Source: an uncultured Clostridia bacterium (GTDB lineage Bacteria > Bacillota > Clostridia > Christensenellales > UBA1242). Taken from it: a DNA stretch of 51,218 nt. The stretch spans positions 1-51,218 of the forward strand of contig CALVNY010000002.1 in the NCBI GenBank assembly GCA_944350085.1, in the 5' to 3' direction. Positions within the stretch are counted from its first letter, which is position 1, and every line of letters begins with the position of its first letter. This document shows positions 4,065-12,075 of this stretch, one piece after another. The position numbers were made by a program, and so were the translations under genes. The notes under the pieces were generated by a model. That model worked only from the letters and a program-made list of their open reading frames with translations. It was not told where the DNA came from and did not search any database.

Positions 4065-4097
4065 ATTAAAGGCATTGAAAAACTCAATGCCTTTTAA
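4065..4097. terminator. Bidirectional terminator between typA and the XRE regulator
   Basis: An inverted repeat (ATTAAAGGCATTG / CAATGCCTTTTAAT) lies between the convergent typA and XRE genes. T-rich runs on the 3' side of each strand suggest it works both ways. It overlaps the last codon of the minus-strand gene. Confidence 0.75.
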
Positions 4098-4300
4098 TAT
4101 TCCAAACCAACTAAATAATCAATGCTAACATCAAAAAACTGAGCCAATAATATTAAAGAACACATTGTTGGTTCTCGAAGACCATTTTCCCACAAACTTA
4201 TTAGCCCCTTACTAACTCCAATTTTTTTTGCAAGTTCAACTTGTCCAATATTTCTTTCTATTCTCAATGATTTTAATATATTTTTAAATTTATTTTCCAT
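4094..4300 (-). CDS. Small XRE-family HTH repressor
   Basis: 68 aa, essentially one HTH_3/Cro-C1 domain. It has the typical order: helix 1 with LRIERN, helix 2 with GQVELAKKIGVS, recognition helix KGLISLWENGLREP, and the closing SLILLAQFFDVSIDYLVG motif. It has no sensor or dimerisation domain, so it resembles a compact phage- or cassette-type repressor. It is divergent from the 4383 gene and is separated from it by two CTTAC-N4-GTAAG inverted repeats, which are the obvious operators for auto- and cross-repression. No Shine-Dalgarno sequence precedes its ATG, and a TAATAT box lies just upstream, so its mRNA may be leaderless. The regulator call is firm; the target assignment is inference from position. 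Confidence 0.92.
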   Translation of the reverse strand: MENKFKNILKSLRIERNIGQVELAKKIGVSKGLISLWENGLREPTMCSLILLAQFFDVSIDYLVGLEY

Positions 4301-4311
4301 ACTTATATTAT

Positions 4312-4354
4312 CTTACAATTGTAAGTAATTATATTGACATCTTACAAAAGTAAG
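4312..4354. promoter_or_regulatory. Paired operators CTTAC-N4-GTAAG for the XRE repressor
   Basis: Two inverted repeats share the same half-site: 4312-4325 (CTTACAATTGTAAG, a full palindrome) and 4341-4354 (CTTACAAAAGTAAG). Their centres are 29 bp apart, close to three helical turns, so bound dimers would sit on nearly the same face. The second lies inside the -35/-10 spacer of the rightward promoter; the first covers the likely leftward start region. Binding by the adjacent XRE protein is inferred from position. Confidence 0.8.
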
Positions 4355-4363
4355 ATATATAAT
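4334..4363 (+). promoter_or_regulatory. Sigma-A promoter of the repeat protein/nuclease cassette
   Basis: TTGACA at 4334-4339 and TATAAT at 4358-4363 with an 18-nt spacer that contains the second operator. Transcription would begin near 4370, giving a leader of only ~13 nt that includes GGAGG. Confidence 0.8.
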
Positions 4364-4382
4364 TAATTAGGAGGATAAAAAT

Positions 4383-4610
4383 ATGATAGAAGAAATTTTA
4401 ATAAAATATTTTGGTGGCAGACCTAGTTATTCAGGTGGTAGATTAGATAAAATAGGGGATTTAAGAGTTGAATATAGCGGTGGTCAAATGGTTAAAGTTG
4501 GAGAATATAGGCTAGAATATAGTGCTGGTAGGTTGTATAAAATTGGCGGTAACATAGTTGAATATAGTGGTGGGAAAATTTATAAAATTGGTGGAATTAG
4601 GGTAAATTAA
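4383..4610 (+). CDS. 75-aa protein made of 15-residue YSGG repeats
   Basis: I do not recognise a named family. The protein is almost entirely a tandem repeat with an exact 15-residue period (residues 14-28, 29-43, 44-58, 59-73). The consensus is roughly (V/L)EYSGGR(L/I)YKIGGxR, with Tyr at 16, 31, 46 and 61 and Gly pairs after it. The pattern of short strands and Gly-turns suggests a small beta-repeat fold. AGGAGG (4369-4374) lies 8 nt before the ATG. It is the first gene after the operator-controlled promoter, and the nuclease-like gene begins 30 bp later, so the two are probably co-expressed. It could be a binding partner, inhibitor or decoy for the nuclease, but nothing in the sequence proves this. 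Confidence 0.85.
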   Translation: MIEEILIKYFGGRPSYSGGRLDKIGDLRVEYSGGQMVKVGEYRLEYSAGRLYKIGGNIVEYSGGKIYKIGGIRVN

Positions 4611-4640
4611 CACAATTTAATTATCCTTATAAATTTAATT

Positions 4641-5852
4641 ATGAACATTAATGATAAAGATTTCTATGATTTTAAACTAAAAATTGAGTTAATAAAACAA
4701 TATAAAGAGCAAAAAAATTTATTAAAAAAGAATAAAAATAATATTTTTAAAATATTAAAATTGGAAGATTTTGAAATTAGACATAGTAATTTTTTAAGTT
4801 GGTTATTGGATTTTAATAGAAATATTGATCTTGCAACAATGTTTATTAAAAGATTTTTAAAACGCTTAAAATTTGAAGATAATGATATTGAAAATTTAGT
4901 AAATAATGTAATGTTAAATCCCGAAAAAAATTATGAAGTTACTAGAGAAGAAGAAAATAAAGACTTATTAATAAAATTTTTAGATAAAAAAATCATAATT
5001 GTTATAGAAAATAAAATATATTCAACAGAAGGAATAGATCAATTAAAAAAATATTATAATGATATAAAATATGGTAAATATAAAGATTTTGAAAGTAAGT
5101 TTGTGTATTTAACAATTAATGGAGATTTGCCATTACAAGAATTTGATAGACTACACTGGCAGTCATTTTCTTATAAAGAAATTAAAGATATATTAACAGA
5201 TATCACAAAAGATCATTGCTACAAAAATTTAGATGAAAATGTAAGAATGATTATTGAAGATTATATATATATTTTAGATGAAAAGACGGAAAGCACTATG
5301 GATAGAGTAAAAGAATATTTTAAATTGTACGAGAAAAATAAAGATATTATGGTTGAAATATCTAAATATGTTCCACAAATAGCAGAAAGAGCAGAAATAG
5401 AAAAAACATACTTAAAAAACAACTTCAGTTTTAATTTAGAAAGTGAAAAACAATGCATATATATTGAGTTTAAAATAAAAGAAATTGAAGATGTTATGAT
5501 TAAAAATAATTTGCCAAATGATTTATTTACGGCAGTTATTTCTAATGAGCCATACAACAAATGTATGTTTATAATAGAAATGAGTAAAGATAGCGATTTT
5601 TATAAATCGTTTGTTAAAGATTTTAGAAACAATTTTGGAATTTCAGAATTAAAAGAACGTAATGGGAATTTTGTGCATTTATATTCACATACCTTTGTTG
5701 TGTCAAAAAATGAAAATGGTAGTTATAAAACGGAACAAGAATTTAAGGATAGAATAAGTATGGCGCTAAAAGAATTTTTTGAAAATAAAGATAGTGAATA
5801 CTTTAAAATAATTAACTATATTAAAAATTATGATTTTAATAATATAAAATAG
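4641..5852 (+). CDS. PD-(D/E)XK nuclease-like protein (PDDEXK_4 type)
   Basis: 403 aa. The N-terminal signature EIRHSNFLSWLLD (45-57) followed by a putative active site matches the PDDEXK_4 group: Asp108 in NKDLLI, Glu123-Asn124-Lys125 in IVIENKI, then Gln134 in DQLKKYY. These form the D...ExK core with the conserved downstream Gln. The C-terminal ~200 residues are not recognised. Family members are often encoded in accessory or defence loci, but few have been studied, so the substrate is unknown. No Shine-Dalgarno is visible; TATAAA (4628-4633) lies 7 nt before the ATG, which could allow a leaderless internal transcript as well as read-through from the repeat-protein gene. Its codons look even more A/T-rich than those of the neighbours, which would fit acquisition. 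Confidence 0.8.
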   Translation: MNINDKDFYDFKLKIELIKQYKEQKNLLKKNKNNIFKILKLEDFEIRHSNFLSWLLDFNRNIDLATMFIKRFLKRLKFEDNDIENLVNNVMLNPEKNYEVTREEENKDLLIKFLDKKIIIVIENKIYSTEGIDQLKKYYNDIKYGKYKDFESKFVYLTINGDLPLQEFDRLHWQSFSYKEIKDILTDITKDHCYKNLDENVRMIIEDYIYILDEKTESTMDRVKEYFKLYEKNKDIMVEISKYVPQIAERAEIEKTYLKNNFSFNLESEKQCIYIEFKIKEIEDVMIKNNLPNDLFTAVISNEPYNKCMFIIEMSKDSDFYKSFVKDFRNNFGISELKERNGNFVHLYSHTFVVSKNENGSYKTEQEFKDRISMALKEFFENKDSEYFKIINYIKNYDFNNIK

Positions 5853-5856
5853 TTTT

Positions 5857-5887
5857 AAAAAGGTGTTGAAATTCAATGCCTTTTTTT
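5857..5887 (+). terminator. Rho-independent terminator of the cassette
   Basis: AAAGGTGTTGA / TCAATGCCTTT hairpin (two G-U pairs) with a run of T. It closely resembles the hairpin at 4065-4097 on the other side of the cassette. Confidence 0.8.
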
Positions 5888-6065: not shown

Positions 6066-7088
6066 ATGGAACAAAATAGTAAGGCATCTATTGCTCAAAT
6101 AGTTACAATTATAATACTTTCCGTACTATTAGTAGTTAGCCTAGTGCTAGGTGCTACTTTTGCTTGGTTTGCCAATCAAAATAGCGCAGATGCAACTATG
6201 ACTATGGGTGGAAAGATTATAATTAGACTTGAAAATTCAGAAGCAAAAAGTGCAACATTTGTTAACAAAACCGCATTATTGCCTGGCACAAAGATTGAAA
6301 GTGATGTAAATGTGTTAATTTCTGAAAGTAACACTCCTTGTTTTTTAAGAGCAAAAATTGATATAACTGTTGAACCTAAAACAGACATAACATTGTCGGA
6401 AGGTTCAAAAAAATTAATTATTGACACTTTTAATAATGGTATTCAACAAATTATTGACGACACAGGAACTTTGTTTTTAGAGTCATCAGACCTTACGGGT
6501 GGCGAACATTATGGAAACATAATTCCAAAAGGTGCTAGATGGATTTTATATGATGGTTGGTTTTATTTGGTTTCGGTTGACCAAGATTTAACGGCAACTG
6601 CTCCAGAAGACATTCAACTGCTTAACATTTACACGGGTAATGCAAGTTTACTTTTGTCGTTTGTTAAAGGAGTATTTTACTTGCCCGGATTGGAATGGGG
6701 CAACGAACTTAAAGATTGTGACTTAACATTTGATATTACTGCACAGGCAATACAAATTTTCCAAACTAAAAAACCGGGTGAAGAAAGGCCAACTTACCAT
6801 AATGAAACATTAGACGAAGCACTGGTTGTATTTGGTGAGGCTTTGGAGCCAGAAATAGTATTTTATGCTAATGGGGGAGATGGCGACTTGCCACTTTCAA
6901 TACTTCCTACTGATGAATTGCCTGTTGGCAGTTTTGTAACACTTCCAACTCCAAATTTAACAAAAGATGGAAAACCATTTAAATGCTGGAACACAAGGGA
7001 AGATGGAAATGGAACAAGTTATAATGGTGGGGATGTTGTAAAACTAACCCCAGCAAAGAAAAAACTTTATGCAATTTACGAAGAATAG
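6066..7088 (+). CDS. TasA/camelysin-like surface protein with C-terminal Listeria-Bacteroides repeat
   Basis: 340 aa. The N-terminus has a long hydrophobic stretch (about 10-33) ending GATFAWF (29-35), the hallmark of signal peptides handled by the dedicated signal peptidase SipW, as in TasA and camelysin. The middle (about 40-255) is a beta-rich exported region with the pattern of the TasA/CamY group (LLPGTKIE, TPCFLRAKIDI, and a late WGNELKD). The last ~80 residues (from EIVFYANGGDG) match a Listeria-Bacteroides repeat (Flg_new): a strand, LPTPNLTKDGKPFKCWNT, NGTSYNGGDVV, then LYAIYEE. It is likely an extracellular fibre or matrix subunit or adhesin. AGGAG is only 3 nt from the ATG, which is short. 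No sipW gene is in the window. Confidence 0.75.
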   Translation: MEQNSKASIAQIVTIIILSVLLVVSLVLGATFAWFANQNSADATMTMGGKIIIRLENSEAKSATFVNKTALLPGTKIESDVNVLISESNTPCFLRAKIDITVEPKTDITLSEGSKKLIIDTFNNGIQQIIDDTGTLFLESSDLTGGEHYGNIIPKGARWILYDGWFYLVSVDQDLTATAPEDIQLLNIYTGNASLLLSFVKGVFYLPGLEWGNELKDCDLTFDITAQAIQIFQTKKPGEERPTYHNETLDEALVVFGEALEPEIVFYANGGDGDLPLSILPTDELPVGSFVTLPTPNLTKDGKPFKCWNTREDGNGTSYNGGDVVKLTPAKKKLYAIYEE

Positions 7089-8910: not shown

Positions 8911-11844
<2,934 letters not shown>

Positions 11845-11956
11845 TCAAATTTTGATGATTATAAATCGTAAATTAAGTTTGATTTCTTTATTTTATTTTG
11901 GTTTACTTATTTTATTAAAATTATGTAGTTGTGAGTGTACTTGAAACATTCAACCA

Positions 11957-12075
11957 TTACTGGTGATTTTAGCAAAGGAGACACACCTGTTCTCATACCG
12001 AACACAGAAGTTAAGACCTTTAGCGCCGAAAATACTTGCTTGGAAACGAGCCGGGAACATAGGTCATTGCCAGTT
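11957..12075 (+). rRNA. 5S ribosomal RNA
   Basis: About 118 nt. The conserved core CATACCGAACACAGAAGTTAAG (11995-12016) continues into TTTAGCGCCGA (12020-12030). The terminal stem pairs ACTGGTGA (11959-11966) with TCATTGCCAGT (12064-12074). It lies 112 bp after the 23S and before a strong terminator, so the unit is 23S-5S. The sequence is divergent from the Bacillus type outside the core. Confidence 0.93.

What the first reader, a model, noticed from the sequence alone, without database searches (positions are those of the whole stretch)
4094..5887. Compact repressor / repeat-protein / nuclease cassette inserted after typA
A divergent XRE repressor with paired operators controls a two-gene unit: a 75-aa protein of 15-residue repeats and a PDDEXK_4 nuclease-like protein. 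The layout (tight repression, small partner, potentially toxic nuclease) resembles defence or toxin-antitoxin modules, but I know of no described system with this composition. The cassette sits among core genes and is bounded by two similar terminators.
Basis: partly seen in the sequence, partly recalled or inferred. Interest (0 to 1): 0.65.

Follow-up and report, generated by a model that had tools for sequence, protein, structure and literature searches.

The report
Repressor-controlled candidate anti-phage nuclease
A small-genome bacterium carries a nuclease gene of a family suspected of fighting phages, held off by its own repressor and preceded by a gene for a tiny repeat protein; the nuclease is a known, mobile kind and only this particular three-gene packaging, seen in one genome, is unusual.

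Summary
At 4094-5852 there is a 68-aa HTH_3 repressor gene on the minus strand. Divergent from it are a 75-aa protein of four 15-residue repeats and a 403-aa PD-(D/E)XK nuclease (PF14281, E 9e-24) with all catalytic residues. Two dyads, CTTACAATTGTAAG and CTTACAAAAGTAAG, are the only such sites in the 1.14 Mb genome; the second fills the spacer of a perfect TTGACA-18-TATAAT promoter.

The claim of 'no described system' is partly wrong. The nuclease matches PADLOC's candidate defence family PDC-S26 (E 4e-46), as do all 18 relatives tested.

The three-gene association is not conserved. The nuclease occurs patchily (24 of 309 genomes of its taxonomic family, 11 of 42 genera), often beside integrases or replication proteins. 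None of 44 related loci has the repeat protein, and at most one has a similar repressor. Four have a WYL regulator directly upstream instead. The repeat protein's few relatives elsewhere were not found beside this nuclease.

Most likely it is a horizontally mobile PDC-S26-type defence nuclease kept silent by a local repressor. The repeat protein is a probable modulator made in excess of a nuclease that lacks a Shine-Dalgarno. Insertion 'after typA' could not be tested.

The parts
4094..4300 (-). XRE/HTH_3 repressor gene, 68 aa, single HTH domain with no sensor or protease domain
   Evidence: PHROG_8 transcriptional regulator E 4e-21; NCBIfam RstR-type repressor E 8e-14, below its cut-off
4312..4325 (.). 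Operator 1, perfect dyad CTTACAATTGTAAG, just upstream of the repressor start codon
   Evidence: only dyad of its kind besides operator 2 in the 1.14 Mb genome
4341..4354 (.). Operator 2, dyad CTTACAAAAGTAAG, inside the promoter spacer
4334..4363 (+). Promoter of the two-gene unit: TTGACA, 18 nt, TATAAT (12 of 12 consensus)
4383..4610 (+). 75-aa repeat protein: short N-terminal helix, then four 15-residue beta-hairpin repeats (YSGGRLxKIGxxRVE); strong Shine-Dalgarno AGGAGG
   Evidence: no family match; model of helix plus 8 strands, mean pLDDT 82; weak YD/RHS-like match, Z 5.0
4641..5852 (+). PD-(D/E)XK nuclease of PF14281 / PADLOC PDC-S26, 403 aa, no Shine-Dalgarno, 20.5% GC
4068..4094 (.). 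Hairpin terminator shared by the convergent typA and repressor genes
   Evidence: RNA fold -14.0 kcal/mol
5857..5885 (+). Terminator after the nuclease, with the same stem arm TCAATGCCTTTT as the typA-side hairpin

Best explanation
This is a horizontally acquired, self-regulated defence cassette whose effector is a PDC-S26-type PD-(D/E)XK nuclease. SHOWN FROM SEQUENCE: the XRE gene and the nuclease unit diverge from a spacer with two private operators, one of which would block the unit's only strong promoter; the nuclease has a complete active site; the repeat protein is translated first and from a strong ribosome site, the nuclease from none. INFERRED: in a resting cell the repressor dimer binds both operators, silencing the nuclease and limiting its own synthesis. 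On phage or foreign-DNA entry, or when the element arrives in a naive cell with no repressor, the repressor is titrated or removed and the unit is expressed. The nuclease then cuts invading (or all) DNA. The repeat protein, made in excess over the nuclease, binds it as inhibitor, scaffold or target adaptor.
For: The nuclease matches 6 PDC-S26 models (best E 4e-46), and all 19 members of its alignment do. The catalytic residues are invariant. Distribution is patchy: 24 of 309 genomes in 11 of 42 genera; 9 of 398 genomes sampled across the phylum. Homologues lie next to phage integrases (L005, L044), a rolling-circle Rep-like protein (L003 and three others), a DDE transposase (L046) and a phage tail gene (L043), and on plasmids beside MazEF or HipA loci. 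GC is 20.5% against 33% for typA. Local regulators recur: a WYL regulator immediately upstream in 4 loci, an HTH regulator on a Leptospira plasmid. Operators are unique and one is placed in the promoter. Among 33 long ORFs of the window, only this gene and one other scored no Shine-Dalgarno.
Against: PDC-S26 is itself only a candidate family; I found no paper in the library that names it. No other defence genes were identified beside this copy. The XRE-repeat-nuclease trio is seen once, so the repeat protein's partnership rests on operon layout alone. A 68-aa repressor without a sensor domain has no evident induction mechanism. The nuclease model has low confidence (pLDDT 55), so the fold rests on sequence, not on the model.
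Confidence: 0.55

Rival explanations
1. Toxin-antitoxin module: the nuclease is a toxin, the repeat protein its direct antitoxin, and the XRE protein an autorepressor that keeps both low. Loss of the labile antitoxin frees the nuclease.
For: Small gene first with a strong ribosome site, larger nuclease second without one; private autoregulatory operators; HTH relatives include HipB-like and PezA-like antitoxin regulators, all well below their cut-offs.
Against: The nuclease occurs without the repeat protein in all 44 related loci, so if it is toxic most relatives need no such antitoxin. The repeat protein's relatives (L011, L037) have no nuclease beside them.
Confidence: 0.2
2. Chance neighbourhood: a stand-alone nuclease happens to lie behind an unrelated repressor/repeat-protein pair, perhaps a remnant of a phage regulatory region, and the repeat protein has nothing to do with the nuclease.
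For: No recurrence of the trio; the repressor resembles phage repressors (PHROG_8); the repeat family appears elsewhere without the nuclease.
Against: Only 30 nt separate the two genes, they share one promoter and one terminator, and the nuclease has no promoter of its own with a good match (best 9 of 12 in a region where such matches are expected by chance).
Confidence: 0.2
3. A solitary restriction-like or repair nuclease with a host function unrelated to phages, under ordinary control.
For: PF14281 function is not established experimentally in anything I could find.
Against: Patchy distribution, mobile neighbours and AT-rich composition are not those of a housekeeping gene.
Confidence: 0.05

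Closest known systems
PADLOC PDC-S26 (single-gene phage defence candidate; PF14281 PDDEXK_4)
   Same: Nuclease matches 6 PDC-S26 models, best E 4e-46 over residues 16-382, with the full active site
   Different: The S in PDC-S marks single-gene candidates (my reading of the name, not tested); here the gene is second in a repressed two-gene unit. It is about 30% identical (22-37%) to the relatives found in its own family of bacteria
WYL regulator + defence locus (BrxR-type control, PMC9122601)
   Same: A local repressor gene with inverted-repeat operators controls a defence gene; WYL-like regulators sit directly upstream of four related nucleases
   Different: Here the regulator is a 68-aa XRE protein without a WYL ligand domain, and it is divergent
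YD/RHS-type beta-hairpin repeats
   Same: Repeat motif Y-S-x-G-R-[IL]-x-[KR]-I-G recalls YD repeats; best structural matches are teneurin and Rhs shells, Z 5.0 and lower
   Different: Only four repeats, no shell or toxin cargo; no Pfam match to the RHS repeat; Z under 8 may reflect only a common arrangement
Type II toxin-antitoxin operons
   Same: Small first gene, larger potentially toxic second gene, autoregulated
   Different: Regulator is a third, divergent gene; the small protein has no recognised DNA-binding domain; nuclease relatives lack it

Membership tests
PDC-S26 / PF14281 nuclease | Full-length match to the family models | tested here: met
   PF14281 84.9 bits against a cut-off of 22.3; PDC-S26 156 bits over 16-382
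PDC-S26 / PF14281 nuclease | PD-(D/E)XK catalytic residues | tested here: met
   E45, D108, E123, K125, Q134 present and invariant in 19 sequences
PDC-S26 / PF14281 nuclease | Location among defence or mobile genes | tested here: inconclusive
   Met for several relatives; not evident around this copy
PDC-S26 / PF14281 nuclease | Protects against phage | not testable with these tools
   candidate family; needs plating assays
Conserved three-gene defence system (repressor + repeat protein + nuclease) | Recurrent co-occurrence in other genomes | tested here: not met
   0 of 44 related nuclease loci hold the repeat protein; one holds a weak XRE match at E 0.006; repeat protein in 2 of 309 family genomes, the other without nuclease beside it
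Type II toxin-antitoxin module | Toxin neutralised by the adjacent small protein | not testable with these tools
   needs expression and binding assays
Type II toxin-antitoxin module | Toxin and antitoxin inherited together | tested here: not met
   nuclease relatives lack the repeat protein
YD/RHS repeat proteins | Match to the RHS/YD repeat models | tested here: not met
   no Pfam RHS/YD hit even at E up to 1
YD/RHS repeat proteins | YD-shell fold | tested here: inconclusive
   Z 5.0 to teneurin-4, rmsd 4.0 over 64 residues, from a single-sequence model

The most novel reading that the evidence does not exclude
The 75-aa YD-like repeat protein is a dedicated partner of the nuclease, a miniature beta-sheet inhibitor or target-recognition adaptor. 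That would make this a new two-protein defence architecture in which a formerly single-gene nuclease has gained a beta-repeat partner under XRE control.
Probability: 0.15. Interest if true: 0.6.

Novelty: new member of a known kind. Interest (0 to 1): 0.32.

Why it matters
If the cassette works as proposed, it shows how an autonomous candidate-defence nuclease is kept silent, and that different lineages of the same nuclease family have taken on unrelated local repressors (WYL in some, XRE here). It also gives a compact, testable member of PDC-S26, a family with no published test that I could find. The small repeat protein is a possible natural inhibitor or adaptor, but that rests on one genome.

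Tried and rejected
Scans of genome contigs and viral contigs with the nuclease alone returned no relatives; a viral-contig scan with the nuclease alignment gave two. My two-repeat DNA pattern was too narrow: it does not match this protein's own sequence, and its one hit (Saprospiraceae, L042) is simple-sequence DNA, so the absence of repeat relatives in genome contigs is not established. Repeat protein against phages and plasmids: none. Nuclease against PDB by sequence: nothing meaningful. Its predicted model is poor (pLDDT 55) and its Foldseek matches are not interpretable; they say nothing for or against the fold. Empty-site comparison after typA failed because gene order there is not kept between genera. 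The similar end hairpins may be a duplicated terminator, but without an empty site this stays a guess. The idea that the Leptospira plasmid locus has the same trio was checked and rejected: its small middle protein looks like an HTH protein (by eye), not repeats.

Full report
WHAT IS THERE. The three genes are real and placed as stated. The minus-strand gene 4094-4300 encodes a 68-aa single-domain HTH_3 protein (E 1.1e-14) closest to phage-type repressors. It has no sensor, protease or WYL domain. The plus-strand gene 4383-4610 encodes 75 residues, of which 60 are four in-register 15-residue repeats. It has no significant match in Pfam, PADLOC, PHROGs or NCBIfam. The plus-strand gene 4641-5852 encodes a 403-aa PDDEXK_4 nuclease (E 9e-24).

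CONTROL REGION. The 82-nt spacer holds CTTACAATTGTAAG at 4312-4325 and CTTACAAAAGTAAG at 4341-4354. No other exact site of the form CTTACAANNGTAAG exists in the 1.14 Mb assembly. Two such dyads sharing an arm appear in 5 of 20,000 shuffles of the spacer. The second dyad occupies the spacer of a promoter that matches TTGACA-18-TATAAT at all 12 positions, so a bound repressor would exclude RNA polymerase; the first lies just before the repressor's own start codon. Autorepression plus repression of the unit is therefore a strong inference, though not shown.

TRANSLATION. The repeat gene has AGGAGG shortly before its ATG. The nuclease has no Shine-Dalgarno; only one other long ORF of the 33 in the window scores none. 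The repeat protein should thus be made in excess. This is an inference from sequence.

THE NUCLEASE FAMILY. Six PDC-S26 models of PADLOC match, best E 4e-46 over residues 16-382. All 19 members of its alignment match PDC-S26 models. E45, D108, E123, K125 and Q134 are invariant. PDC stands for 'phage defence candidate': putative systems still to be characterised (PMC10855318, PMC11514479). I found no paper naming PDC-S26 or PF14281 in the library. In the window's taxonomic family, 24 of 309 genomes in 11 of 42 genera carry a relative, at about 30% identity. The window's gene is the only copy in its genome, has 20.5% GC against 33% for typA, and is best explained as acquired. Relatives lie beside phage integrases, a rolling-circle Rep-like protein, a transposase or a phage tail gene, and on plasmids.

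IS THE TRIO A SYSTEM? Of 44 related nuclease loci (most with about 1.5 kb of flank where the contig allows), none has the repeat protein, by single-sequence or profile search at E up to 1. Only the Leptospira plasmid locus has a weak XRE match, E 0.006. That locus has a divergent HTH gene and a small HTH-like gene before the nuclease, with no repeats. Four loci have a WYL regulator immediately upstream (L002, L018, L033 and gut phage contig L089; Pfam WYL E 8e-9 to 8e-11 for the first three, the fourth by similarity to them). WYL regulators of the BrxR family repress phage-defence loci through inverted repeats, and about half of them are co-located with such systems (PMC9122601). So the recurring theme is 'this nuclease under a local regulator', with different regulators. 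The trio itself is not conserved in what I could search.

THE REPEAT PROTEIN. Relatives in the family: one of 308 other genomes (L011, 84 aa, between ordinary genes, no nuclease). In an order-wide sample: a 203-aa protein with the same motif at 16-residue spacing and no nuclease nearby (L037); a fragment at a contig end (L038); and a doubtful match inside a large surface protein (L039). None in 337 other genomes sampled across the phylum. The predicted model is a short helix followed by eight strands (pLDDT 82, single sequence). Its best solved-structure matches are YD/RHS shells (teneurin-4, Z 5.0, rmsd 4.0 over 64 residues). This is too weak to assign membership, and no RHS-repeat Pfam model hits. 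Binding of a partner by an exposed beta sheet is plausible but unshown.

INSERTION AFTER TYPA. The end hairpins share an 11-bp stem and the 12-mer TCAATGCCTTTT, whose other two genomic copies are not hairpins. This fits a duplicated terminator, but the genes after typA differ in all other loci read and no second genome of the genus was available. An empty site could not be shown.

VERDICT. The effector belongs to a listed candidate defence family, and the composite is so far a single instance. I rate it a new member of a known kind, with modest interest, and leave open a 15% chance that the repeat protein is a true new partner.

Noticed in passing
window 8911-12075: 23S and 5S rRNA genes without a 16S gene upstream; about 800 nt of very AT-rich DNA with a promoter-like TTGACA before them. 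No 16S was found in the assembly, so the rRNA genes may be unlinked, or the 16S may simply be missing from the assembly.
   Followed up: partly
L002, L018, L033, L089: A WYL-domain regulator gene lies directly upstream of a PDC-S26-type nuclease in four loci (three genomes of the same taxonomic family and a faecal phage contig): a recurrent two-gene unit that looks more conserved than the window's trio.
   Followed up: partly
window 6066-7088: Gene after the cassette encodes a protein with a weak camelysin-like N-terminal region and a C-terminal Listeria-Bacteroides repeat (Flg_new), probably an exported surface protein.
   Followed up: no
L005, L006, L007, L025, L026, L027: Nearly identical PDC-S26 nucleases in several genera, five of the six with a tyrosine recombinase or its relative upstream: signs of recent transfer between genera.
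   Followed up: no
L037:1255-1866: 203-aa protein made largely of 16-residue YYSxGRIMKIG repeats in another family of the same order, a longer relative of the repeat protein with no nuclease nearby.
   Followed up: partly
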